The position numbers and the translations under genes are program-made. The notes beneath the pieces were generated by a model that saw only the letters and a program-made list of their open reading frames with translations, made no database searches and was not told where the DNA came from. A stretch of DNA of 32,414 nucleotides from contig CANQZD010000003.1 in NCBI GenBank assembly GCA_947628275.1, positions 1-32,414 of the forward strand. The letters are read 5' to 3'. The stretch is from an uncultured Bacilli bacterium (GTDB taxonomy: Bacteria > Bacillota_I > Bacilli_A > RF39 > UBA660). This document shows, one piece after another, positions 3,412-26,167 of the stretch. The stretch's first letter is position 1. Each line of letters starts with the position of its first letter.

Positions 3412-5056
3412 GCAACTTCGTAAAAGTACTTTTATTGAAGGAACTGTTTTAGCAACATTTTGTATTGTTGTTACAAAAATTTTAGGAATGGTTTATGTAA
3501 TTCCTTTCTACAGCTTAATTGGACCTAAAGGTAGTGCCTTATATGCTTATGCTTATAATATTTATGTAATTTTTTTAAGTATATCGACCGCCGGTATTCC
3601 AATGGCTATTAGTAAAATGATTAAAGAATATAGTACTTTAAAAAATTTTTCAGCTAAAAAGCAAACATATAATTTAGGTAAAAAATTAATTATGAGTGTC
3701 TCGTTATTAATGTTTCTGATATTGTTTTGTTTTTCTAAACCAATTGCCATTTTAATATTGGGTAATCTAGAAGGTGGTAATACCATTTTAGATGTTAGTT
3801 TAGTTATTCGTTTGATTTCTTTTGCTCTTTTAGTAATTCCTTTTTTAAGTATTAATCGGGGATATTTACAAGGTCATAATATTATAAAAGAATCAAGCAT
3901 TAGTCAAATAATTGAACAATTAGTGCGAATTTTATTTATTTTAGTTAGTTCCTTTATTATCATAAAAATCTGTCATCAAAAGGAGATTACAGCTGTTTCA
4001 TTTGCTGTTTTAGGAGCTTTGATTGGCGGGATAAGTGCCCAGATATATTTATATTATAAAATTAAAAAAAATCGTCATGAGTTAAACTTAGATGTTGAAG
4101 TCAAAGACTTTCAACTAAATAAAGAAATAATTTTAAGAATAATTAAATATGCGATTCCTTTTGTCATTATTGATATTGTTATATCCGTTTATAATTTTAT
4201 AGATATGGTTTTTATTTCGCGAACAATGACTTATTTAGGATTTCCAGGAAGTACTACGGAATTTGTGACTACCTCAATTGCAACCTGGGCTAATAAAATT
4301 AACATGATTGTAAATTCAGTTGCCATTGGCTTGACAATTAGTTTAATTCCAAATATTGTCGAAGCTTTTACATTGAAAAAATGGCAAACTGTCGAGCAAA
4401 GAGTAAACAAAGCTTTACAAATTTTGTTAGTTACAAGTTTGCCAATGACAATTGGAATATCCTTATTAGCAGATGGTATTTGGAGTATTTTTTATGGCTA
4501 CAATAAACTTGGAACTGAAGTGTTAAGCTTAGAAATATTTACAGCTTTATTTTACAATTTCAATACAGTAACTTTTACAATTTTACAAAGTATGGATAAA
4601 TTTAAAACCGTATATTTATCAACTTTTTCTGGCTATATTATTAATGCTTTACTTGATGTACCCTTAATGCTTTTATGTTACCAATTACATTTAAAACCAT
4701 TTTATGGAGCTTTAATTGCTTCGATTATTGGTTTAGGTTTAAGTACTTATCTTGCTTTAAGTAAACTAAAAAAAGAATATAATCTTCAATATCATGAGAC
4801 AACTAAAATATTTAATAAAATAATTATTCCTATAATAATTATGATTTTAATTGTTATTAGTTTAAAAATTATTATTCCTTGTAATTTTAATAGTAAGTTA
4901 TGTTCTATTTTGTATGTTGCCTTTATAAGTATTATAGGAGGTAGTAGTTATTTAATTTTATTATTTAAAAATCACGTTTTAGAAACTGTTTTTGGTAAAA
5001 GTTATCTTCATAAAATTATAAAAAAAATTACTTTTGGAAAAGTAAATTTTTCTTAA
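3398..5056 (+). CDS. Polysaccharide biosynthesis/MOP-superfamily flippase, SpoVB/MurJ-like
   Basis: 552 aa, many TM segments; N-terminal KGTxLATFCIVVTKILGMVYVIPFYSLIGPKGSALYAYAYNIY resembles SpoVB-like flippases. Confidence 0.85.
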   Translation: MKKSKQLRKSTFIEGTVLATFCIVVTKILGMVYVIPFYSLIGPKGSALYAYAYNIYVIFLSISTAGIPMAISKMIKEYSTLKNFSAKKQTYNLGKKLIMSVSLLMFLILFCFSKPIAILILGNLEGGNTILDVSLVIRLISFALLVIPFLSINRGYLQGHNIIKESSISQIIEQLVRILFILVSSFIIIKICHQKEITAVSFAVLGALIGGISAQIYLYYKIKKNRHELNLDVEVKDFQLNKEIILRIIKYAIPFVIIDIVISVYNFIDMVFISRTMTYLGFPGSTTEFVTTSIATWANKINMIVNSVAIGLTISLIPNIVEAFTLKKWQTVEQRVNKALQILLVTSLPMTIGISLLADGIWSIFYGYNKLGTEVLSLEIFTALFYNFNTVTFTILQSMDKFKTVYLSTFSGYIINALLDVPLMLLCYQLHLKPFYGALIASIIGLGLSTYLALSKLKKEYNLQYHETTKIFNKIIIPIIIMILIVISLKIIIPCNFNSKLCSILYVAFISIIGGSSYLILLFKNHVLETVFGKSYLHKIIKKITFGKVNFS

Positions 5057-5367
5057 ACCATATACATATTACCATCGGTATTATACGTATCATTAGTAAA
5101 ACTTGTATTAGCACTTTCTAATCTATTTATTCGTGCTTCTAATCTATTTATAGCTCTTTCTAGTTTAGCCATTCTTGCTTCTATTTCATTCATATTCATT
5201 GGCATATCATTGGCATACACTGGATAATTAAGGGGCATATTAGACTGATAATAACTAGAATTAGCCATTACATTTGGCATTGCATTTTGATACATTGGTA
5301 TTGGACTATTATTTGCGCTCATATTAAAATTTGAAGATTGAAAAAATGAATTACGGTCTTTTTTCAT
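5053..5367 (-). CDS. Hypothetical Met/Asn/Pro/Tyr-rich protein with C-terminal coiled coil
   Basis: AGGAGG RBS upstream on the minus strand; low-complexity N-terminus and heptad segment IEARMAKLERAINRLEARINRLES. Confidence 0.7.
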   Translation of the reverse strand: MKKDRNSFFQSSNFNMSANNSPIPMYQNAMPNVMANSSYYQSNMPLNYPVYANDMPMNMNEIEARMAKLERAINRLEARINRLESANTSFTNDTYNTDGNMYMV

Positions 5368-5459
5368 GAAGCTTATCCTCCTTTTTAATTTATTATATGT
5401 TATTTACCTAGAAAGTTGCATTTTAAAAAAATTATGAGATAATAAAAACGGTGATTTAG

Positions 5460-6089
5460 ATGCGTTTAAGAAATGTAAAAAATGCTGGTGATATTTTAAA
5501 TGATAGTAAATATTTTATTAAGGATAATTATCAAGGTAATTGGTCTAAATTTTTTAAAAATAATTATCCTATATCTTTAGAAATTGGCTGTGGTAAAGGT
5601 GACTTTTTAATTAATATGGCTAAAACTTATCCTCATGTAAACTTTATTGGTATTGAAAAATATGAAAGTGTTTTAGTAAGAGCTATTGAAAAAGTTAATA
5701 ATCTAGAACTTACTAATATATGTTTTATGTGTCTTGATGCTTTAGAACTAAATAAATATTTTAATCGTGAAATAGATACTATTTATTTAAACTTTTCTGA
5801 TCCATGGCCTAAAAAACGTCATGCTAAAAGAAGACTTACTTCACCAATTTTTTTAGATATTTATGAACAAATATTTAAGAGTAATCCGCATCTTTTCTTA
5901 AAAACTGATAATCTAATTTTATTTGCCTATAGTCTTGAAACTTTAAGTAACAAAGATTATAAATTTAATAAAGTATCACTTGACTTAGCAAATGAAAATC
6001 TCTTTAATATTCAAACGGAATATGAAACTAGATTTAGTAATTTAGGATATAAAATTAATTATTTAGAAGCCATTAAAAAAAGGGTGTGA
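5460..6089 (+). CDS. trmB: tRNA (guanine-N7-)-methyltransferase
   Basis: EIGCGKGDFL SAM motif, FIGIEKYE, LNFSDPWPKKRHAKRRLT signature. Confidence 0.95.
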   Translation: MRLRNVKNAGDILNDSKYFIKDNYQGNWSKFFKNNYPISLEIGCGKGDFLINMAKTYPHVNFIGIEKYESVLVRAIEKVNNLELTNICFMCLDALELNKYFNREIDTIYLNFSDPWPKKRHAKRRLTSPIFLDIYEQIFKSNPHLFLKTDNLILFAYSLETLSNKDYKFNKVSLDLANENLFNIQTEYETRFSNLGYKINYLEAIKKRV

Positions 6090-6094
6090 TTAAG

Positions 6095-8197
6095 ATGATT
6101 AAAAGTAAAAAAATAAAAGTCATATTAATATTAATTCAAACAATTCTAGCATATTTATTAACGGTATATATTTTAAATAATACTCTTAAGTTATCTTTAT
6201 TATTTAATGTTGATATATTTTTATTTTTAATTATCTGGCTTATTAGTTTTCTTGCTTTATGTCATTTTTTCATACCTATAAAAAAACTATATCATTGGTT
6301 ATTTCAAAAAAGATTTATCCTTTCATTTTTATTATTAATTCTATTGGTTTTAGGTAAATTTAACGGTAGTTCTTATGGGATGTGGAATACTTATATTGAA
6401 CCAAATTATCCAGTTTCTAGTTTAAATTCAATTATGGCTCCAATAAGAGCTATTAGAAGTGATGAATGGTTTGTTAATTCTCCTCATGTTTTATCTCAAT
6501 TTAACAATGATTTTGCCTATTATAATTCTTACTCTAGAGGAATATCTACTGATATGTTTACTACTTTACCTGTTCCTATTAAAAGTATCTTGCTAGCTAC
6601 TAAACCATTTTTAATTGGTTATTTAGTATTAGGTAAAGATTATGGAATGTCTTTTTATTGGTGGAGTAGATTAATTGTTTTATTTTTAGTTACTTTTGAA
6701 TTTTTTAGAATTTTTACAAAAGATAATCGACAAATATCTTTACTTGGAACGATTTTAGTAACTTTTTCTCCTGCTATTTTTTGGTGGTATTCCCAATATT
6801 TAGTTGAACAATTAATAGGAGGAAATTTAGCTATTATTATGTTTTATTACTTATTACACTCTAAAGAAAAGAAAAAGAAAATATTATTTTCCCTAGGTTT
6901 AGGTTTTGGCTTTTTAATCTTTTTCTTTACTTTGTATCCAGCTTGGTTAGTGCCTTTAGGTTATTTCTATTTACTTTTAGCTTTATATTTACTTTATGAT
7001 TATCACCAAAAAGAAAAAATTAAGCTTAAAGATTTAGCGTATTTATTAATTCCTCTTAGTATTTTTGCTATATTTTTAACTATTTTCTTGACTAAAAGTT
7101 ATGAAACTATCAAAATAATTAGTAATACTATTTATCCTGGTCAAAGAAATTCTTTAGGAAATGAAGGCTTTTTAAATTTATTTTATTATCCTATATCTCT
7201 TTTCTTACCTTACAAACCAGTTGATAATCCTTGTGATTTAGCCCTTTTTTATTCTTTTTTTCCTTTAAGCATTATTTATGGTATTGAAGTTTTAATTAAA
7301 GAAAGAAAAAAACTGTCAGAAAATTATTTATTATTAATAATCATTATCTTAGTTATTTTATTAAGTGCTTTTACAATTTTTAAAATTCCAAGTTTTTTAG
7401 CTAGAATAACTTTACTATCAAATGTTACTGGTAAAAGATTAAGTGTTATAATTTCTTTTATTAGTTTATTTATCTTTATTCTTTTAGCTAATAAAAAAAT
7501 TGTATTTACTTCTAAAGAAAAAATCTGGCTTTTTATCACCACCATTTTATGTTCAATTTTAACAATTTTAGTAACTAAAAATGCTATTTCTTCTGTCTTT
7601 GTATTAAGTAAAAAAGCATTTTTAATAGCGTTTATTGTTTTACTAATACCTTCTTTAAGTTTAGTTTTTTCTCATTCCATTACTAAAAAAATTCTCACTC
7701 TTAGTATTATAATTATTTCTTTTATATCAACAATTTGGGTAAATCCTTTAATGAAGGGCTTTAATGGTATTTATGAAAAACCTTTGGCTAAAGAATTAGT
7801 AAAATATCAAACTGAAGATAAAAAATGGTTAATCTTAGATAGTTTTGTTCTCCCTAATTATTTTTTAGCAAATGGTTTAAAAGTGATTAATTCGACTAAT
7901 GTTTATCCTAATCTGACTCTTTATCATTTATTAGATAAAGATTTAAAATATGAAGATACCTATAATCGTTATGCTCATGTAGAAATTAAGCTGACTAACG
8001 ATAAGACAAGTTTTACAAGTCCTTATGAAGATCAAGTCCATATTGCTTTAAATCCAACTGATTTATGTCTTTTAAATGTTGATTATCTTGGTTCTTTAAC
8101 TGATGTATCTAAATTTTCTAATCAAAATATTTCTTTTAAAGAATTATATCATTTAGATAATATATATTTATATCAAGTTACGTGTAAAAATTCTTAA
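6095..8197 (+). CDS. Large polytopic membrane protein, possible GT-C/YfhO-like glycan-modifying protein
   Basis: About 700 aa, numerous TM helices, adjacent to glycan export genes; ATG 6095 preferred over GTG 6086. Confidence 0.55.
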   Translation: MIKSKKIKVILILIQTILAYLLTVYILNNTLKLSLLFNVDIFLFLIIWLISFLALCHFFIPIKKLYHWLFQKRFILSFLLLILLVLGKFNGSSYGMWNTYIEPNYPVSSLNSIMAPIRAIRSDEWFVNSPHVLSQFNNDFAYYNSYSRGISTDMFTTLPVPIKSILLATKPFLIGYLVLGKDYGMSFYWWSRLIVLFLVTFEFFRIFTKDNRQISLLGTILVTFSPAIFWWYSQYLVEQLIGGNLAIIMFYYLLHSKEKKKKILFSLGLGFGFLIFFFTLYPAWLVPLGYFYLLLALYLLYDYHQKEKIKLKDLAYLLIPLSIFAIFLTIFLTKSYETIKIISNTIYPGQRNSLGNEGFLNLFYYPISLFLPYKPVDNPCDLALFYSFFPLSIIYGIEVLIKERKKLSENYLLLIIIILVILLSAFTIFKIPSFLARITLLSNVTGKRLSVIISFISLFIFILLANKKIVFTSKEKIWLFITTILCSILTILVTKNAISSVFVLSKKAFLIAFIVLLIPSLSLVFSHSITKKILTLSIIIISFISTIWVNPLMKGFNGIYEKPLAKELVKYQTEDKKWLILDSFVLPNYFLANGLKVINSTNVYPNLTLYHLLDKDLKYEDTYNRYAHVEIKLTNDKTSFTSPYEDQVHIALNPTDLCLLNVDYLGSLTDVSKFSNQNISFKELYHLDNIYLYQVTCKNS

Positions 8198-16167: not shown

Positions 16168-18729
16168 ATGGATTCTAATGATGTTAATGATACTGAAGAA
16201 CTAACAAACGATGAAGAATTAATGGATAATAATAATCTTCCATCTGAAGAACCGCCTTTAGAAGAAAATGAAGCCCAAATGGATATAGAACCACCAAAAA
16301 GTGGCAATTTTTTGGGTGTGGCTAGTAAGAAATTAATTAATTTACTATTAAAAAGGAAACTTATTGTTATTGGGGCTGTTGGCATTATGTTTATCGTTTT
16401 TTTAGCAGTCTTTTTTGGTTCGAATGTTTCTACTGAAACATACAATTATAAGAAAATGGAGAGTTTAGATGATCCTTGTGATATGGTTGAAGTAACATAT
16501 GCTCCATATGGTAGTAACGAAGTTGAAACATCTTCTCTTGCCCTAGAAGATTATATTGCTAAAGCTACTTATACATATACTAAAGATTTTAAAAATATTA
16601 ATGAAGGAACATATCACTTATATAAAGCTTTAGCTATTGCTTTAAGAACAGAAGTTGTATCTCATGGTTGTAAAGTAACTTATAAAGATAAAAAGTTACT
16701 TAATAAACCGGCTATTGAAGGTAAATACAATATCTTAAACAATGCTTTAGAATCAGCTGAAGGAGTAATTATATCTAAAGCTGGTAAAAAAAAGATTATG
16801 AGTACTGAAGTATCTGATTTTTGCTATAGTAATAATGATGGCAATAATTATACAATTTTTCAAGTCCCAGACTTTTTAATTCCTAGTGAATGGGTAGATA
16901 AAAATGTCCCTAGTCGTTATAAAGATTGTCCTTGTAATCAACCTGATGAAAACTTAAGTGCTTGTTATGAAGAAGGAGATTTTAAAGAATGGGCTCACCA
17001 AGATGACACAAGTGGTTTTAATGTTTATGCAGCATATTATTTACTTGATGAATATAAATTAAGTTGGTCAGATATTTTAAAATATTTTGTTGGTGACCAT
17101 AATTATTGGACAATTAAAGAAGAAGATGAAGAAGAAAACGAAAATGCTTTAAATGAAAATTGTGGAGCGATGGATTTACATAAAACTAGTCTAAGTAAAT
17201 CTCAATTTGTTGCGGGTATGAAATCTTATAATTACAATGGAGCAAGTCCTGCTGGTTGGCAAAAATTTGTTAATAATGCTGAAACTATTTATGATGTTGC
17301 CGTAGCTAATAGTATTAATCCTGAATTTGTCGTTGTAAGAGCAATATTAGAAGGTTTTTCACCAGGGGAAGGGAAAAATAATTATTGGGGCTGGACCTGC
17401 TATAACACCTGCCCAAGTTGTTGTACTGATTTTGGGGCTAATTTTAAAGATGCTGTTGCCTCATATTGCCAAGCTGTATACAAACAATACACTGATTATA
17501 ATGATTTATTAAGAAGTTATGCTTATTTAGGTGATTATTGGTATAATCCTGGTGATGAAAGTATAGGTGGTTGCTATTATGCTCCATATATTTTCCCAGA
17601 TGGAATTCCTAAAAGAGTTGAACAAGCATGTAATGGTCCCGCTTGTAGTTCTGGTAATCCTGCTAGTTGCACTAAAACTACTGAAGAAGAACAAATCTTA
17701 TATGGTAAATATCAAGATCGTAATACTCAAACATACCGAAAAGCAATATGGAATATTAGTGAAACTGATTGTAAAATGCAAAATAGTGGAGCCGGTTGTC
17801 TATGGTGGCCAATTGGTTCTAAAAAAACAACTGTAAGAGATGAAATAACTTATGCTGATGGAGAGCCTGAAACAACTACTATAACTAGCGGTTTTGGTAA
17901 ACGTGATGCTCCATTATCTGGGGCAAGTACTAATCATAATGCCATTGATATTGGTGGTGGCGAAGAATTTAATACTAATATAATTGCGGCTGCTGATGGA
18001 ACTGTTAAAAATATAAATACTGGGTGTGTAGCTGGAAATTATTCTTGTGGTGGTCAATTAGGAAATTATGTCTTTATTGCTCATGATGATGGAAGTCTAA
18101 CTAGATATGGTCATATGAGTAGCGTCTTGGTTAACGAAGGTGATCAAGTTAAGCAAGGAGAAGTTATTGGTAAATTAGGAAATACGGGAAATTCAACTGG
18201 CCCTCATTTAGATTTCCAAGTTCAAGTAAATGGTCAAATTGTCGATCCGACAAACTATGTATCTGCTAGTGACCCAAGAAAAGTTTGTAGTGGTTCTGGA
18301 AGCATCGTAAATGGTGATAATAATAAACAAACTATTTGTTTAACTTTAAAAAATAGTGGCTATAGTACTAATGCTATTGCCGGAATTATGGGCAATTTAC
18401 AACACGAAAGTGGGTTTGATCCTGAAAGTGTTAATGACTCAAATCGTAAAGGAATTGCTCAGTGGAGTCCAACTAGATTTAATAAATTAACTAGTATTTA
18501 TGGAAGTAATAGTTATTCAGTTGAAAGTCAAATTAAGTTCTTAATTAAGGAATTAAATGAATCTTATCCAGAAGCTGAAAAATATTTAGGCGAAAAACAT
18601 TCAGCTAAAGACCAAGCATATAATTTCTGTGTGGCTTATGAAAAACATAGTAAAAGTGAATGTGATAATTCCTTAAGAGAAGATTATGCTACTGAATTAG
18701 TTAGTTATGTAAAAAATGATTGTAGTTAG
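16168..18729 (+). CDS. Membrane-anchored multidomain peptidoglycan hydrolase: acidic cytoplasmic N-terminus, one TM, possible SpoIID-like region, glucosaminidase/transglycosylase-like region, M23 endopeptidase, C-terminal phage-tail-lysozyme-like domain
   Basis: M23: SGFGKR...NHNAIDIGG...YGHM...GNTGNSTGPHLDFQV. Lysozyme-like: CLTLKNSGYSTNAIAGIMGNLQHESGFDPESVNDSNRKGIAQWS. TM: LIVIGAVGIMFIVFLAVFFG. Confidence 0.85.
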   Translation: MDSNDVNDTEELTNDEELMDNNNLPSEEPPLEENEAQMDIEPPKSGNFLGVASKKLINLLLKRKLIVIGAVGIMFIVFLAVFFGSNVSTETYNYKKMESLDDPCDMVEVTYAPYGSNEVETSSLALEDYIAKATYTYTKDFKNINEGTYHLYKALAIALRTEVVSHGCKVTYKDKKLLNKPAIEGKYNILNNALESAEGVIISKAGKKKIMSTEVSDFCYSNNDGNNYTIFQVPDFLIPSEWVDKNVPSRYKDCPCNQPDENLSACYEEGDFKEWAHQDDTSGFNVYAAYYLLDEYKLSWSDILKYFVGDHNYWTIKEEDEEENENALNENCGAMDLHKTSLSKSQFVAGMKSYNYNGASPAGWQKFVNNAETIYDVAVANSINPEFVVVRAILEGFSPGEGKNNYWGWTCYNTCPSCCTDFGANFKDAVASYCQAVYKQYTDYNDLLRSYAYLGDYWYNPGDESIGGCYYAPYIFPDGIPKRVEQACNGPACSSGNPASCTKTTEEEQILYGKYQDRNTQTYRKAIWNISETDCKMQNSGAGCLWWPIGSKKTTVRDEITYADGEPETTTITSGFGKRDAPLSGASTNHNAIDIGGGEEFNTNIIAAADGTVKNINTGCVAGNYSCGGQLGNYVFIAHDDGSLTRYGHMSSVLVNEGDQVKQGEVIGKLGNTGNSTGPHLDFQVQVNGQIVDPTNYVSASDPRKVCSGSGSIVNGDNNKQTICLTLKNSGYSTNAIAGIMGNLQHESGFDPESVNDSNRKGIAQWSPTRFNKLTSIYGSNSYSVESQIKFLIKELNESYPEAEKYLGEKHSAKDQAYNFCVAYEKHSKSECDNSLREDYATELVSYVKNDCS

Positions 18730-18737
18730 GAGATTCT

Positions 18738-19631
18738 ATGAAAAAAAAGAAAGTTATTCGTTTTGTTATCATTATAAGTATCTTCTTATTAATTTTTCTT
18801 CTTGTTTATCTAATTAATGGTAAGAACAGATTAGGAATTGAAAAATATGAAGAACCACCTGCTGAAAAAATTCCTTATGATATGACACTTGTTGATGATT
18901 ACAGTTATTTCTTTTCCGTTGTTAATATCATAAATAATTATTTGAATTATGTTAAAAATCAAGATACGGAAGCTTTAATTAATATTTTACATCCTGAGTA
19001 TCTTGATTCATATAAAATAAATAGCAATAATTTATATGAAAATTTAGGCACTTTTACTGAGGGTTTACAACTAGCTTATGAAGCCAAAAATATGGATTAT
19101 AAAATTTATGATAATCGGTATCTTTACTATGTTAAAGGGGATATTATTGAAAATGATTTTGAAGATAGTAAAATCATTATGAATGATGTAATGTTTTTAG
19201 TTAATATTGATTATGATAATATTACTTATGCAATCTATCCTCTAAATTATCTTTATGAAACCTTACCAATTATCAACCCTCAAAAGCCTATTAATTTAAA
19301 TGCTTATAATGAATTAATTGGTTCAAATGTTATAACTAAAGATTATTTGTGTAATTTATACTTAAATGATTTTATTATTAAGCTAAATAATAACTTGGAA
19401 AATACTTATGATTTATTAGCTAATAATTTTCGACAAAAATCTTTTGCCCACAAAAAAGATTATTTAAATTATATGCAAAATGTTAAAGATAAAATTAGTT
19501 CACAAGTATTTAGTTGTAGCTCATTAAGTGGTAAGAAAAAAGTTTATGAAGTTAAAGATATGAATTTTAATGTTTTTACTTTTACAGAAGAAAGTATTAT
19601 GAATTATAAAGTTGAATTTACAATCAATTAA
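18738..19631 (+). CDS. Bitopic membrane protein with large extracellular region; possible VirB8/TcpC-like (NTF2-fold) T4SS component
   Basis: N-terminal TM RFVIIISIFLLIFLLVYLI followed by two similarly organised soluble segments; lies between a wall hydrolase and a VirD4-like gene. Fold assignment is inference. Confidence 0.5.
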   Translation: MKKKKVIRFVIIISIFLLIFLLVYLINGKNRLGIEKYEEPPAEKIPYDMTLVDDYSYFFSVVNIINNYLNYVKNQDTEALINILHPEYLDSYKINSNNLYENLGTFTEGLQLAYEAKNMDYKIYDNRYLYYVKGDIIENDFEDSKIIMNDVMFLVNIDYDNITYAIYPLNYLYETLPIINPQKPINLNAYNELIGSNVITKDYLCNLYLNDFIIKLNNNLENTYDLLANNFRQKSFAHKKDYLNYMQNVKDKISSQVFSCSSLSGKKKVYEVKDMNFNVFTFTEESIMNYKVEFTIN

Positions 19632-19657
19632 TATTTTGTGGTTTTAGTATTTTGTAG

Positions 19658-19663
19658 TATAAT
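19658..19663 (+). promoter_or_regulatory. Possible -10 element (TATAAT) upstream of the VirD4-like gene
   Basis: TATAAT with weak TTGTGG (19636-19641) 16 bp upstream. Confidence 0.4.
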
Positions 19664-19687
19664 AATGAAAGTTAAAGGAGGGCGACT

Positions 19688-21799
19688 ATGAAATTCCGAG
19701 TTTCACCAAAAGATTTTACAATTTTCATCATTTTTTGCATTTTTTTGCTTTATTTATGTGCTATTGCTGTTTTAAATTTTTCTTCATTTGCTAATGATGG
19801 AACCTTTCATGGCTTAAATCCTTTTCCGGCTTTTGGACCTGATTATATCTTTTTAACTTTATTTATGTTTGTGATGGCATTAGTTATGATATTTTCTAGT
19901 GTTTCATCTTATATTTTTGAAAAAGATAAAAGTGGTAAAAGATTAATTAATGTTAAAGAAAAAGAAGAAAAAGGTTATTCTCGTTGGGCTAAAGAAAAAG
20001 AAATCAAAGAAGATAAAGGAATCGTTCATATTAAAGCGATTGATAAAAATATTGAAGGTGCAGGAATTCCAATTATTAATAATGGTACTGATTTATGGGT
20101 TGATAATGGGGAATATCATACTTTAATTATTGGTACAACTGGTAGTGGTAAATCTGAATGTGTGGTTAAACCTCAAGTTAATGTTTTGGCTAAAAAAGGC
20201 GAAAGTATGATTGTTACTGACCCTAAAGGTGAACTATATAAATATTGTGGAAGTTATTTAAAAGAACAAGGTTATAATATTATTGTTTTAAATTTTAGAG
20301 ATCCTGAAGAGGGTAATGCTTGGAATCCCTTGACGGCGCCTTATCAAAATTATAAAAATGGTAATCGTGATAAAGCTACTGAATTATTAGATGATATTGC
20401 TACTAATATTTTAGTGGACCCAAAAAACAAAGAATCTGCCTTTTGGGAAAGAAGTGCAGCTGACTATTTTTGTGGTCTTGCTTTAGGCTTATTTAAAGAT
20501 GCTAAAGAAAGTGAAGTAAATTTAAATTCTATAAATGTTATGAGTACTATTGGCGAAGAACGTTTTGCAACTAGTCATTATATTAATGAATATTTTAACT
20601 TAAAAGGTGCTGATTCTTCTGAATATATCTTTGCTTCAAATACAATTAATGCTCCAAATGAAACCAAAGGGGGTATTTTATCAACCTTTAGACAAAAAAT
20701 AAGAATTTTTTCTTCAAGAGAAAAATTAAGTGAAATGTTATCTTATAGTGATTTTGATATGCGTTCTATAGGTGAACAAAAAACGGCTGTTTTCTTAATA
20801 ATTCATGATGAAAAAACGACTTATCATAGTTTATTAACCGTCTTTTTAAAACAATGTTATGAAACACTAATTGATGTAGCTAAACAACATGGTGGTAAAT
20901 TACCAGTTAGAACCAATTTTATTTTAGATGAATTTGCCAATATGCCACCTTTAAGTGATGTTGATTCCATGGTTTCAGCGGCAAGAAGTCGGGATATTAG
21001 ATTTACCTTTATTATTCAAAACTTTTCCCAATTAGATGACGTGTATGGTAAAGAAGTCGCCCAAACAATTAAAGGAAATTCTAACAATTGGATATATTTG
21101 ATAAGTACAGAAATGGCTGCTTTAGAAGAAATTAGTAAAATGTGCGGTGAAGTTAAAAGTAAAGAAAAAGATAAAACAGCATCAACGCCATTAGTAACTA
21201 TTACAGATTTACAAAAGATGAAACTTTTCCAAGCCATCATTATCCGTTCAAGAATGGCTCCATTTAAAACTCAACTAGAACCAGACTTTAAAATGGATTG
21301 GGGAATTGAACGTAAGGAAATGGCTTTCCCTCATCGTCAGATGAAACATGTTGATACTTTCGATATTAAAAACTATGTTTCCGAAGCTAAAAGAAAACAA
21401 ATGATGGAAAATAATTCTAGTGATTCAAATCCTTTTAATCCTTTTGCTAATCCTAGTTTACCTCCAATGGGCTTTAACCCTTTTGGTGGAATTCCAATTA
21501 ATAACGGTGGTGCAATGCCTACAATGAATAGACCAGCTGGCAATTTAACAAGTGAAGAAATTGATAAAATGATTGCCGATATCGATAAAAAATTGGCTGA
21601 ATTAGATGAAGAAGAAGCAAAAGAAAAAGCAAATCTTGAAAATCAAGTATCTAATAAAGACAAAGTTAAACCAATTATTAAAGAAGAAACACCTAAGGAA
21701 GAGGAAAAGCCAAAAATTAATGTTGATACTGATGCCATTATTATGAATGATAATATGATTACTGATGATGAATTTTTTGATGATTTTTTTAATGATTAA
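19688..21799 (+). CDS. VirD4/TraG-family type IV secretion coupling ATPase
   Basis: Two N-terminal TMs; Walker A IIGTTGSGKSECVVKP; MIVTDPKGELY; FILDEFANMPPL; FIIQNFSQLDDVYG; acidic/disordered C-terminal tail. Confidence 0.92.
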   Translation: MKFRVSPKDFTIFIIFCIFLLYLCAIAVLNFSSFANDGTFHGLNPFPAFGPDYIFLTLFMFVMALVMIFSSVSSYIFEKDKSGKRLINVKEKEEKGYSRWAKEKEIKEDKGIVHIKAIDKNIEGAGIPIINNGTDLWVDNGEYHTLIIGTTGSGKSECVVKPQVNVLAKKGESMIVTDPKGELYKYCGSYLKEQGYNIIVLNFRDPEEGNAWNPLTAPYQNYKNGNRDKATELLDDIATNILVDPKNKESAFWERSAADYFCGLALGLFKDAKESEVNLNSINVMSTIGEERFATSHYINEYFNLKGADSSEYIFASNTINAPNETKGGILSTFRQKIRIFSSREKLSEMLSYSDFDMRSIGEQKTAVFLIIHDEKTTYHSLLTVFLKQCYETLIDVAKQHGGKLPVRTNFILDEFANMPPLSDVDSMVSAARSRDIRFTFIIQNFSQLDDVYGKEVAQTIKGNSNNWIYLISTEMAALEEISKMCGEVKSKEKDKTASTPLVTITDLQKMKLFQAIIIRSRMAPFKTQLEPDFKMDWGIERKEMAFPHRQMKHVDTFDIKNYVSEAKRKQMMENNSSDSNPFNPFANPSLPPMGFNPFGGIPINNGGAMPTMNRPAGNLTSEEIDKMIADIDKKLAELDEEEAKEKANLENQVSNKDKVKPIIKEETPKEEEKPKINVDTDAIIMNDNMITDDEFFDDFFND

Positions 21800-21806
21800 C
21801 TATAAG

Positions 21807-21830
21807 AGGCTTAAAGCCTTTTTTCTTTTT
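21807..21830 (+). terminator. Intrinsic terminator after the VirD4-like gene
   Basis: AGGC ttaaa GCCT followed by T-rich tract. Confidence 0.8.
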
Positions 21831-21843
21831 GTCAAAAAAGCCA

Positions 21844-21874
21844 TTGACTAGGGGGGGGGGTCTTATGTTATAAT
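21844..21874 (+). promoter_or_regulatory. Promoter with G10 homopolymer in the spacer (predicted phase-variable)
   Basis: -35 TTGACT (21844-21849), A + G10 (21851-21860), extended -10 TG-T-TATAAT (21866-21874); spacer 19 bp. Confidence 0.88.
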
Positions 21875-21901
21875 TGCTTTATAATAGAAAAGAGGATAAT
21901 A

Positions 21902-24900
21902 ATGAAAAAAATAAGTGTGAATTTGATTATGGTATTTAGCTTTTTCTTAGCATTTCTTCCCCATAATGTAAATGCTTGTACTGCCAATAGTGCATCTACT
22001 TTAAGAAGTTGCTTGGAAGGTGCTGATGAAATTATTAATATTGATTCTACTGGTTTGGGCAATACTTATAAAGAAGTTTTTGAAATTAAGCGAGATGTTC
22101 AAATTATTGGTAGTTCTGATAAAAGTAGTTTCGCAGGTCAATTTAAAATTGTTAACACTAATAGCAACAATAAAGTAGTTATTAAAAATCTTAAAATTAG
22201 TTTTCGACTTGATGTTGATGATAATAACTATAGTAATATTTTGGTAACATCACCAGTTGATTTAACCATCAGCAATATTTATACTTCATATGCATCTGGA
22301 ACACTTTCTACTCTTGAATTTAGAACTATTAATTTTGAAGGAAATATTGATGATTCTAAGGTAAATATTGAAAATAGTACAATTAATGGCTTTTTTGATG
22401 GTATAAGAATTGGTGGCGATAATGTAACAGTTAATATTAAAGATTCTTATATTCATAGTCGTTATGCTCTAGCTATTGGTAAAGAAGGAGAGCAACATTC
22501 TAAAAATCGTGTAAATATTTCTAATTCTAAATTGTATGCAACTTCTAATAATGAAGCTGAAGCTGCTTTAATTATTGGTGGTCAAGACGATTTAGAAGTT
22601 AACATTGATGGCAAAAGTGAGCTTAGTAATTCCAACTATGACAATGCTAATAAGCCTAAAGCTGCTGATATTATTCGCTTTTATAATGGTAAAGACAATA
22701 CTCTAAAAAATACTAATGTAACCATTAACATTAAAGATCAAACTATTATTGATGATGAGTCTATAAATAATGCTCCTAATCATCTTTTCCATTTTGGTGC
22801 AGCTAATTTAGATAGTAATAACGTTATTAATATTGGTAAAGATGTAAAAATGGAATTAAATGGTAAAGATAAAATTGAAATTGCCAAGAAATATAATAAT
22901 GACCAAACAGGTTATTATATTGTTGGTTTATATGACTTTGATGGTAGTTCTACAATTAAAACATACCCAACCAGTGATGTTGATGAACAGACTGATTTAG
23001 CAATGCAAGAAATTGCTAATAAAGTTGAAGAAAATTATAAATTTAAGGGTTGGTATACCGATGTTGATTTAACAAATTCTAAACCAACTAATATTACTAG
23101 TAATATTGATTTATATCCTAAAAAAGTAAAAATTTATACAGTTACTATTGCGGGTGAAGAGTTCAAAGAGGTTGAAGAAGGACAATCTTTAAAAGATTTT
23201 GCTTTAAGTAAAATTAATGAACTAAAAAATCCTGGCAATAAAATTATTGAAAATTTTTATAAAGAAAATGCTGATGGTAGTGAAACCGTTATTGATAAAG
23301 ATAGTATATTAGATTATGAAGTTTATGAAGATTTAAAAATAAATGTTAAATATAATGTTAAAATAACAATTAAAGATGATTCAGAAACTGAGTTCATTAT
23401 TCCTGAAGGTGGAACTTTAGATGGTCAAGACCTTGAATCTTTAAAAGAGGCAACTGACAAACAATTTGATCATTTTGAAGCTAATAATGAAAAAGTAATT
23501 GAAAGTGGCGATGGTGCGACAAAATTTACTGAAAATACTGAATTAGTTAGAAAATATACGGTTAATGTTACCATTGAAGGTCAAACTAATAATCCTTATA
23601 AATTAAATGAAGGTGATACACTTGATACATTAGATACTAAATATGATAAAATTTTAGAAAAACTAGAAAAAGTAACCAATGGTGGCAAGAAAACCTTTAA
23701 AGAATTTAGAAATACAGCAACTAATACTAAGATTGATAAAACTTCTCAAGTAACTAAAAATATTACCATTAAACCAATTTATGAAGTAGAAGTTACGATT
23801 GGTAAAACTAAAATTTCTGTTGAAGAAGGAACGACTTGGGAACAATTACAAACTAATGATTTGGCTAAACAAGCTTTAAGTGAATTAGAAAATATTAATG
23901 CTTCTCGTTTTGTACGTTTTGAAATTAATGGAACTCCTTTAACAAATGAATATGTTTTCAATGAGCCAGAAGAAATAACAGCTAGATTTAAAATTATTAT
24001 AACTATTGGTGAAGAACAACTAAGTTTATTAGAAGGTGAAAATTTTAATAATTTAAGTGCTAGTGATGAAGAAAAAGTTACTAATCTTAAAAATGTTGCT
24101 AATAAAACTTTCAGTCATTTTGAAAAAACTGGTGAAGAAATTGATGTTTATAATACCCCATTCAATGAAGATACCGTGTTGACCCCAGTATATAATGTTA
24201 ATGTATTACTTAATGGTAAAACTTACACTTTAAGAGATGACCAATCAATATTAAGTTACAATAATACCGAAATAAATGAATTATTAGATAATGTTGTTGC
24301 TAAACGCTTTTCTCACTTTTTAAATGAAAAAAATGAGGTAATAAATCGTGATACTATTATTACTGAAAATATGGAATTAAAACCTATCTATGTTATTGAT
24401 ATTACTATTGGCGATGAGAGCGTTACAGTTAATGAAAATAGTACATGGCAAGAAATTTTAACTAAAATTAATAGTAGCAGTTTAACTCAAGAAGCTTTAG
24501 AAAATTTAAAAAATTCTGGTTCTAAAAAATGGGCATACTTCGTTGATGATGATAATAATAAAATTGAAAATGATACAATATTTACTAAACATACTACTAT
24601 TAGTTCTAAATTTTATGTTAAAGTAACTATTCAAAATCAAGCTTTTGCTGATAAATATCTAGAAGTAATTGAGGGTGAAAATTTAAATTCTCTAACTCCT
24701 GATAATCAAGCTATATTAGATGAAATAAAAAATCAAGCTAATAAAACTTTCAGTCATTTTGCAAAAGATGGTGAAGTATATAATCTTGAAGATGCTATCA
24801 ATGAGGATGTAACTTTAACAGCTGTATATGAAATAATTATTACAATTAATGAAGAAGAATTTACTTTATATGATAATCAAACTTTAAATAGTTTAGGTGA

Positions 24901-26167
24901 TAAGTTAGACCATTTTAAAAATATTTCTGATAAATCTTTTGCTTATTTTGCAAAAGATGGTGCGAAAGTATTTGAAGATAGTACAACTTTCAGTGAAAAT
25001 ACTACAATTACTCCAATATATACAATTACTATAACAATTGAAGATGAAGAATTTTCTAATATTGCGGATAACTTAACTTTTGAAGAAATTAAAAATATAA
25101 GTGGAATAAAAGAAAAATTAGCTAGTTTAGAAAATGATCATTTTGCTTATTATGAAATTCTTGGTAAAGAAGTCAAAGATACTGATGTAATATCTACTAA
25201 TACTACAATTACTCCAGTATATTATGTTTTCTTAAAAGTTAATGATGTAACAATTAAATTATTAAAAGGTCATAGTTTTAAAACATTGACTTCTACAGAA
25301 AAAGCTAAAATAAGTCAATTTGAAAATCCTAGTGATAAATCTTTTAAATATTATTTAGCAAACAATGAAATAGTTACCGATGAAACTACTTTTGATACTG
25401 ATACTATTTTAGTACCTAAATATACAATTAAAATTACGATTGATGATGAAGAATTTACTCTTGATGAAGGTTCTAAATTAACTGACCTTGCTACTCAAGA
25501 AAAATATCAAGCTCTTAAAAATCCTCAAGATAAACAATTTAAATACTTTAAAAATGGTAATGAAATTGTTAATGAAGAGCAAGATATCTTTACTAGTAAT
25601 ACTACGTTAGATGCAATCTATGAAGTAACTGTTACTATTGGTAGTGAAAAAATCAATGTTTTAGAAAATACTAGTTTTCAACAATTAAAAGAAAATAGTG
25701 ATGTTAATAATTGGCTAGCTAACTTAAAAGATAATTCTAATAAAGAATTTGCTATGTTTGTTGATGAAGATAATCAAGAAATTTTGGATACAACCTTATT
25801 TATTAAAAATACAACTATTTTACCTAAATTTTCTATTATCATCTCAGTAGCTGACCATGAATTTAAATTACTAGAAGGTCAAACATTAAATGATTTAAGC
25901 GAAGAAGATAAAGCTATTTTAGAACAACTAATGGAATCTAGTAACCAAGTATTTAGTCATTATATCAATAAAGAAACTAAAGAAGTTGTAAATAATGATA
26001 CTAAACTTTATGAAAATACAACTTTAGAAATGGTGCTTGAAGAACAAGAAAATATTAATAATCCTCAAACTGGTGATAATATTTTTAAATATATTGGTCT
26101 AGCTATTGTAATGATAATTCTTATTGGTAGTTGTCTAAAAAAATTAATGGCTTATAATAAAAATTAA
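21902..26167 (+). CDS. Large repeat-rich cell-wall-anchored surface protein (LPXTG-like NPQTGD sorting signal)
   Basis: Signal peptide MKKISVNLIMVFSFFLAFLPHNVNA; N-terminal beta-helix-like region; FKGWYTD motif; about 14 repeats of 65-75 aa; C-terminal NPQTGDN, hydrophobic helix, basic tail. Confidence 0.9.
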   Translation: MKKISVNLIMVFSFFLAFLPHNVNACTANSASTLRSCLEGADEIINIDSTGLGNTYKEVFEIKRDVQIIGSSDKSSFAGQFKIVNTNSNNKVVIKNLKISFRLDVDDNNYSNILVTSPVDLTISNIYTSYASGTLSTLEFRTINFEGNIDDSKVNIENSTINGFFDGIRIGGDNVTVNIKDSYIHSRYALAIGKEGEQHSKNRVNISNSKLYATSNNEAEAALIIGGQDDLEVNIDGKSELSNSNYDNANKPKAADIIRFYNGKDNTLKNTNVTINIKDQTIIDDESINNAPNHLFHFGAANLDSNNVINIGKDVKMELNGKDKIEIAKKYNNDQTGYYIVGLYDFDGSSTIKTYPTSDVDEQTDLAMQEIANKVEENYKFKGWYTDVDLTNSKPTNITSNIDLYPKKVKIYTVTIAGEEFKEVEEGQSLKDFALSKINELKNPGNKIIENFYKENADGSETVIDKDSILDYEVYEDLKINVKYNVKITIKDDSETEFIIPEGGTLDGQDLESLKEATDKQFDHFEANNEKVIESGDGATKFTENTELVRKYTVNVTIEGQTNNPYKLNEGDTLDTLDTKYDKILEKLEKVTNGGKKTFKEFRNTATNTKIDKTSQVTKNITIKPIYEVEVTIGKTKISVEEGTTWEQLQTNDLAKQALSELENINASRFVRFEINGTPLTNEYVFNEPEEITARFKIIITIGEEQLSLLEGENFNNLSASDEEKVTNLKNVANKTFSHFEKTGEEIDVYNTPFNEDTVLTPVYNVNVLLNGKTYTLRDDQSILSYNNTEINELLDNVVAKRFSHFLNEKNEVINRDTIITENMELKPIYVIDITIGDESVTVNENSTWQEILTKINSSSLTQEALENLKNSGSKKWAYFVDDDNNKIENDTIFTKHTTISSKFYVKVTIQNQAFADKYLEVIEGENLNSLTPDNQAILDEIKNQANKTFSHFAKDGEVYNLEDAINEDVTLTAVYEIIITINEEEFTLYDNQTLNSLGDKLDHFKNISDKSFAYFAKDGAKVFEDSTTFSENTTITPIYTITITIEDEEFSNIADNLTFEEIKNISGIKEKLASLENDHFAYYEILGKEVKDTDVISTNTTITPVYYVFLKVNDVTIKLLKGHSFKTLTSTEKAKISQFENPSDKSFKYYLANNEIVTDETTFDTDTILVPKYTIKITIDDEEFTLDEGSKLTDLATQEKYQALKNPQDKQFKYFKNGNEIVNEEQDIFTSNTTLDAIYEVTVTIGSEKINVLENTSFQQLKENSDVNNWLANLKDNSNKEFAMFVDEDNQEILDTTLFIKNTTILPKFSIIISVADHEFKLLEGQTLNDLSEEDKAILEQLMESSNQVFSHYINKETKEVVNNDTKLYENTTLEMVLEEQENINNPQTGDNIFKYIGLAIVMIILIGSCLKKLMAYNKN
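23141..26050 (+). repeat. About 14 degenerate protein-coding repeats of about 65-75 codons
   Basis: Recurring pattern (V/I)x(V/I)TI....(F)x(L)xEG.xL..L.......L.......K.FxxFxxx........T.....T.(L/I)xPxY. Confidence 0.85.

What the first reader, a model, noticed from the sequence alone, without database searches (positions are those of the whole stretch)
21844..21874. G10 homopolymer inside the -35/-10 spacer of a surface-protein promoter: a predicted phase-variation switch
Sequence shows TTGACT-a-GGGGGGGGGG-tcttatgt-TATAAT just upstream of a 1421-aa wall-anchored surface protein. A run of ten Gs is very unlikely by chance in so AT-rich a genome, and no comparable G-run was noticed elsewhere in the window. 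The tract lies wholly within the spacer, so slipped-strand gain or loss of Gs would change spacer length (19 bp now; 17 bp with G8) without touching the protein. Spacer-tract phase variation is established for Neisseria meningitidis porA and opc and for Mycoplasma lipoprotein promoters. A poly-G version driving an NPQTG-anchored repeat protein in this type of bacterium would be a new instance. A terminator (21807-21830) insulates the gene from upstream read-through, which would make the switch effective. The present 19-bp state is predicted weak, though the extended -10 (TGn) may partly compensate.
Basis: partly seen in the sequence, partly recalled or inferred. Interest (0 to 1): 0.93.

Follow-up and report, generated by a model that had tools for sequence, protein, structure and literature searches.

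The report
Poly-G promoter switches for surface proteins
A run of ten Gs sits between the two recognition boxes of the promoter of a giant cell-surface protein, and it is one of a genome-wide set of such runs (up to several dozen per genome) that an uncultured family of gut bacteria appears to use to flip its surface proteins on and off by miscounting Gs.

Summary
The G10 run is real and lies wholly inside a -35/-10 spacer (TTGACT-A-G10-TCTTATGT-TATAAT, 19 bp) before a 1421-aa NPQTG-anchored protein. It is not isolated. The same 947-kb genome has 15 G8+ runs: seven lie in the same promoter slot, eight inside coding sequences. Of six coding tracts with a visible start codon, five are out of frame and one in frame. 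Two contigs overlap identically except for G10 versus G11. Among 147 relatives, 31 genomes carry such promoters, up to 38 matches in one, against none for the reversed control; all lie in one family, versus 1 of about 195 genomes elsewhere in the phylum. The genes behind them are mostly secreted or anchored paralogues. Best explanation: porA-type spacer phase variation, deployed as a large surface phasome in an uncultured Bacilli lineage. The mechanism is known; the lineage, scale and combination with frame switching and a DGR look new. Length variation at this exact locus, its effect on transcription, and which length is ON remain unshown.

The parts
21804..21829 (+). weak intrinsic-terminator-like hairpin with T-rich tail, end of the upstream TraG/VirD4-like gene
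   Evidence: -7.8 kcal/mol, z -1.65
21844..21849 (+). -35 hexamer TTGACT (5 of 6 to consensus)
   Evidence: same TTGAC anchor in 6 sister tracts of the genome
21851..21860 (+). G10 homopolymer, the proposed slippage tract, wholly inside the 19-bp spacer 21850-21868
21861..21868 (+). linker TCTTATGT with extended -10 TGn; TCTTATGA in five of six sister promoters, TATTATGG in the sixth
21869..21874 (+). -10 hexamer TATAAT
21890..21895 (+). ribosome-binding site AAGAGG, 6 nt before ATG
21902..26167 (+). 1421-aa repeat surface protein with N-terminal signal segment, List_Bact repeat (sub-threshold) and NPQTG anchor
26060..26074 (+). NPQTG sortase motif followed by a hydrophobic segment and charged tail
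   Evidence: translation; sortases in genome

Best explanation
The G10 tract is a contingency switch. During replication the polymerase slips on the G run and adds or removes Gs (inferred). That changes the distance between the -35 and -10 boxes away from or towards the 17 bp that ordinary promoters of these bacteria use, so transcription of the surface gene rises or falls in a heritable, reversible way (inferred). The same device is repeated at seven promoters of this genome, and at dozens of promoters of paralogous surface genes in related species (shown as sequence). A second set of G tracts in the same genome sits inside the 5' coding ends of a putative DGR-target gene family, and of an acyltransferase, and switches them by frameshift (shown as sequence states; switching inferred). 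The cell population would thus express varying combinations of surface proteins, probably to evade phages, host antibodies or competitors (inferred).
For: All seven promoter-type G9-11 tracts in the genome share TTGAC-N1-2-Gn-(TCT/TAT)TATGn-TA-rich -10, before at least three unrelated surface gene groups. Genus and family relatives: 31 of 147 genomes, up to 38 matches each, reversed-pattern control 0, none outside the family in that sample; 1 of about 195 other-family genomes in a phylum sample. In the loci examined G runs fall off from G4 to G7, then long tracts of 8-11 reappear almost only in promoter slots; those loci were chosen for long runs. Tract length varies while flanks stay fixed: linker-identical paralogous promoters carry G8, G9, G10 or G11, and 5 of 10 tract pairs with at least 60 identical flanking bases differ in G count. 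Contigs C24 and C27 overlap with 95 identical flanking bases but G11 versus G10. Coding tracts: five OFF, one ON, with long open frames behind them. Linked genes have an N-terminal hydrophobic segment in 93 of 120 versus 117 of 455 control ORFs, Fisher p 4e-25. Promoter tracts lie near contig ends 17 times versus 1.7 expected (also expected from repeats).
Against: No reads, strains or expression data for this species; length variation at this exact tract is not observed. Several genomes show nearly uniform lengths (G029, G015 all G10; G068 all G8), which a fast switch need not give unless one length dominates. MutS is intact, so slippage rates may be modest. The extended -10 could make the promoter tolerant of spacing. 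Three of the window gene's homologues have ordinary promoters, one an unclear one, one an interrupted tract. A second TATAAT (21880-21885) leaves the start site open. Assembled homopolymer lengths can be off by one.
Confidence: 0.85

Rival explanations
1. The G run plus its linker is a fixed operator: a species-specific regulator binds the poly-G core, and constant length matters more than variation.
For: Within a species the core (-35, G run, linker, -10) is nearly identical at many genes while upstream flanks differ, and some genomes have one G length throughout. Interrupted tracts keep nearly the same length.
Against: Tract length varies with identical flanks; the same G8-11 tracts occur inside coding sequences where only frame makes sense; the linker differs between species; most genes behind a tract within one genome are paralogues, so shared cores can be inherited.
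Confidence: 0.07
2. The tract slips, but expression hardly changes because the extended -10 carries the promoter; the runs persist as mutational hitch-hikers of duplicated promoters.
For: TGn before the -10 in all own-genome promoters; homologues with ordinary promoters exist.
Against: Strong restriction to promoter spacers and coding ends of surface genes; long G runs are rare elsewhere in these AT-rich genomes; found in several genera of the family.
Confidence: 0.05
3. Sequencing or assembly artefact (for example two-colour poly-G calls) or chance.
For: Homopolymer lengths in short-read MAGs are uncertain.
Against: Runs are internal to contigs with conserved promoter boxes on both sides, in many independent assemblies; reversed control zero.
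Confidence: 0.01
4. G-quadruplex element (pilE-G4-like) promoting recombination or controlling transcription.
For: G-rich tract next to surface genes.
Against: A single run of 8-11 G lacks the four separated runs that an intramolecular quadruplex normally needs (established knowledge; for the window).
Confidence: 0.02

Closest known systems
Neisseria meningitidis porA (poly-G) and opc (poly-C) promoter-tract phase variation
   Same: G/C homopolymer in the promoter (porA: between -10 and -35) of a surface-protein gene; one-base changes alter transcription of porA (PMC3899988); opc C11 to C12 raises expression (PMC3447861).
   Different: There single loci in a Gram-negative; here seven promoters in one incomplete genome and up to about 40 pattern matches in a relative, in Gram-positive Bacilli, controlling paralogous surface families; effect on transcription untested here.
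Mycoplasma hyorhinis vlp system
   Same: Combinatorial expression of a multigene surface lipoprotein family in low-GC relatives of Bacilli (cited in review PMC11868660); a poly-A tract in the vlp promoter region is from general knowledge, not checked here.
   Different: Poly-A rather than poly-G, few genes, wall-less pathogen; here wall-anchored and membrane-anchored proteins. The poly-G promoter pattern was found in 1 of about 195 sampled genomes of other families of the phylum.
Campylobacter/Helicobacter G/C-tract phasomes
   Same: Many G/C tracts per genome, intergenic and intragenic (abstracts of PMC8355987, and PMC2823697).
   Different: From general knowledge those are dominated by coding tracts; here the promoter-spacer position is widespread in relatives and coding tracts are a second layer.

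Membership tests
porA/opc-type spacer-tract phase-variable promoter | homopolymer located wholly between -35 and -10 | tested here: met
porA/opc-type spacer-tract phase-variable promoter | gene encodes a surface protein | tested here: met
   signal segment, NPQTG anchor, sortases in genome
porA/opc-type spacer-tract phase-variable promoter | tract length varies between cells or strains at this locus | tested here: inconclusive
   no reads or strains available; variation seen at sister tracts and in one contig overlap
porA/opc-type spacer-tract phase-variable promoter | transcription depends on tract length | not testable with these tools
   needs reporter or RNA data; ordinary promoters in these loci peak at 17 bp
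multi-locus phasome (contingency loci) | many homopolymer tracts concentrated in surface genes | tested here: met
frameshift (translational) phase variation | tract in 5' coding region with ON and OFF frames and undecayed downstream ORF | tested here: met
   for sister genes in the genome, not for the window gene
G-quadruplex pilE-like element | four separated G runs | tested here: not met
   single G10 run, no other G7+ run in window

The most novel reading that the evidence does not exclude
An uncultured family of gut Bacilli runs its cell surface by a two-layer contingency system: dozens of poly-G spacer promoters, each setting one member of a paralogous surface family, plus poly-G frameshift switches in genes that also look like targets of a diversity-generating retroelement with an array of about eight template repeats. 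Expression and binding-site sequence would then be randomised independently.
Probability: 0.5. Interest if true: 0.85.

Novelty: new variant of a known kind. Interest (0 to 1): 0.74.

Why it matters
Poly-G spacer switching is known from single loci of Gram-negative pathogens. Here it looks like a main way in which an uncultured gut lineage diversifies its surface, with many independent switches per genome. It makes testable, from existing metagenome reads, how commensals generate surface heterogeneity. It also offers dozens of natural promoters that differ mostly in spacer length. It warns that MAGs of this lineage tend to break at these tracts and that truncated ORFs may be phase-OFF genes, not pseudogenes.

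Tried and rejected
Loss of mismatch repair as the cause: rejected, MutS is intact (MutL not checked). Gene-family naming of the surface proteins gave only weak hits, apart from a camelysin-like and lectin-like protein in one relative. Papers linking RF39, or uncultured Firmicutes or Tenericutes, to poly-G phase variation: none found in the open library; subscription papers are not covered. The GTDB name of the genus could not be obtained; related records are titled uncultured Bacilli, Clostridia or Tenericutes, many from rabbit gut. Contig-end enrichment was kept only as weak evidence because repeats also break assemblies.

Full report
Observation. The window holds TTGACT (21844-21849), A, ten G (21851-21860), TCTTATGT, TATAAT (21869-21874): a 19-bp spacer with a TGn extended -10, an AAGAGG ribosome-binding site and ATG at 21902. 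It is the only run of seven or more G on either strand; 100 dinucleotide shuffles gave on average 0.26 overlapping G7 matches, none reaching the observed 4. The gene encodes 1421 aa with a signal segment and an NPQTG anchor, and the genome has four sortases. The upstream hairpin is a weak terminator, so insulation from the upstream TraG/VirD4-like gene is only partial. A second TATAAT at 21880-21885 leaves the start site formally open.

Not isolated. The window's genome (947 kb in 51 contigs, 66.8% complete) has 15 separate runs of G8-G11. Seven sit in the same place: TTGAC, one or two bases, G9-11, an eight-base linker ending TATGn, and a -10-like hexamer. The other eight are inside coding sequences. 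None is left over. The promoter tracts precede at least three unrelated gene groups: the window gene, a pair of 246-247 aa proteins with an N-terminal signal and a C-terminal membrane segment, and a family of membrane-anchored proteins of 440-535 aa; two tracts run off their contigs before the gene.

Relatives. A pattern for this promoter was found in 31 of 147 relatives, up to 38 matches in one genome, while the reversed pattern gave none; all hits lie in the window's own family. In a phylum-wide sample only one of about 195 genomes outside the family matched. Taking about one hundred of these promoters with their genes shows the design: most of the sampled genomes have a paralogous surface family whose members each have their own poly-G spacer promoter, with a species-specific linker. 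Of linked ORFs of at least 150 aa, 93 of 120 have an N-terminal hydrophobic segment against 117 of 455 other ORFs of the same loci (Fisher p 4e-25).

Evidence that the tracts slip. (a) Promoters with identical linkers within one genome carry different G counts, for example G8, G9 and G10, or G9, G10 and G11; of ten tract pairs with at least 60 identical flanking bases, five differ in G count. (b) Contigs C24 and C27 overlap over 66 and 29 identical bases on either side of a coding tract that is G11 in one and G10 in the other; the two contigs carry the two halves of what looks like one gene. This is the nearest thing here to a within-sample length polymorphism, though two near-identical copies cannot be excluded. 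(c) Six coding tracts have a visible start codon: five are out of frame and one in frame. The out-of-frame genes, bar one cut by its contig, keep a long open frame after the tract (full lengths 564 to 741 aa), as expected of reversible OFF states rather than decay. (d) Promoter tracts lie within 150 bp of contig ends 17 times against 1.7 expected (with a few positions converted from the reverse strand by hand), which both polymorphism and repeats would cause.

Which length is ON. In the fetched loci, TTGAC[AT]..TATAAT promoters without a G run have spacers that peak at 17 bp (25 of 48). Poly-G promoters cluster at 16 and at 19-20, with fewer at 17-18 (the fetched set mixes taxa and the search pattern shapes it). 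Against a simple reading, 19-20 bp is the common assembled state of the genus, and interrupted G tracts, which should slip less, also keep about 19 bp. Either most members are OFF at any time, as could be expected of a multigene family, or a G tract tolerates a longer spacer. I leave this open.

Homologues of the window gene. One in G028 has a G10 promoter with the same 19-bp layout, one in G003 an interrupted G tract with 19 bp, three others (G002, G008, G009) ordinary 17-18 bp promoters, and one (G017) no G tract. The switch therefore appears to be gained and lost between species.

Comparison. Promoter-tract switching is established for porA (PMC3899988) and opc (PMC3447861). The window promoter meets the anatomical criteria; variation at the locus is not observed and the effect on transcription cannot be tested here. 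What is different is the lineage (uncultured Gram-positive Bacilli), the number of copies and the pairing with coding tracts. Literature searches of the open library found no earlier description.

Side finding. The genome carries a diversity-generating retroelement on contig C5: reverse transcriptase, bAvd, a MutS-domain-I protein and about eight template-like repeats. A variable-region-like gene end differs from one template at 25 adenines among 33 mismatches. The 3' ends of several coding-tract genes resemble these repeats, so the same genes may be switched by G slippage and mutated by the retroelement; for those more distant copies the adenine bias is weaker (roughly a third to a half of the mismatches), so that link is a hypothesis.

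Noticed in passing
L222 (own genome contig C5:1-16000), 279-6282: Diversity-generating retroelement: RT (5254-6282), bAvd (4914-5282), MutS_I-like protein (4555-4917) and an array of about eight template-like repeats; a VR-like gene end at 279 differs from one template mostly at adenines (25 of 33 mismatches).
   Followed up: partly
L036:9706, L037:10003 and 12363, L038:67 and 1918, L039:40 and 2315: Coding G8-G11 tracts about 55 codons into a membrane-anchored surface family; five visible genes are OFF by frame; 3' ends of several resemble DGR variable regions.
   Followed up: partly
L033:8135-9214 (C2): Acyltransferase-3 family protein (possible wall or glycan O-acetyltransferase) with a G10 tract 10 codons after its start, currently in frame.
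   Followed up: no
own genome contigs C24 end and C27 start: Contig overlap identical apart from G11 versus G10: assembly break at a length-variable tract, usable as a general signature in MAGs.
   Followed up: partly
window 16168-21799: Peptidoglycan hydrolase (M23 plus phage-lysozyme-like) followed by a TraG/VirD4-like coupling protein: looks like part or remnant of a conjugation module upstream of the surface gene.
   Followed up: no
genomes G028, G008, G029: Interrupted G tracts (for example GGGAGGGGGG) of about the same total length as intact ones, possibly locked switches that could reveal the functional spacer length.
   Followed up: partly
family-wide: Genomes of this family mostly have one MutS_V match (MutS), whereas sampled relatives in other families mostly have two or more; the second may be MutS2.
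   Followed up: no
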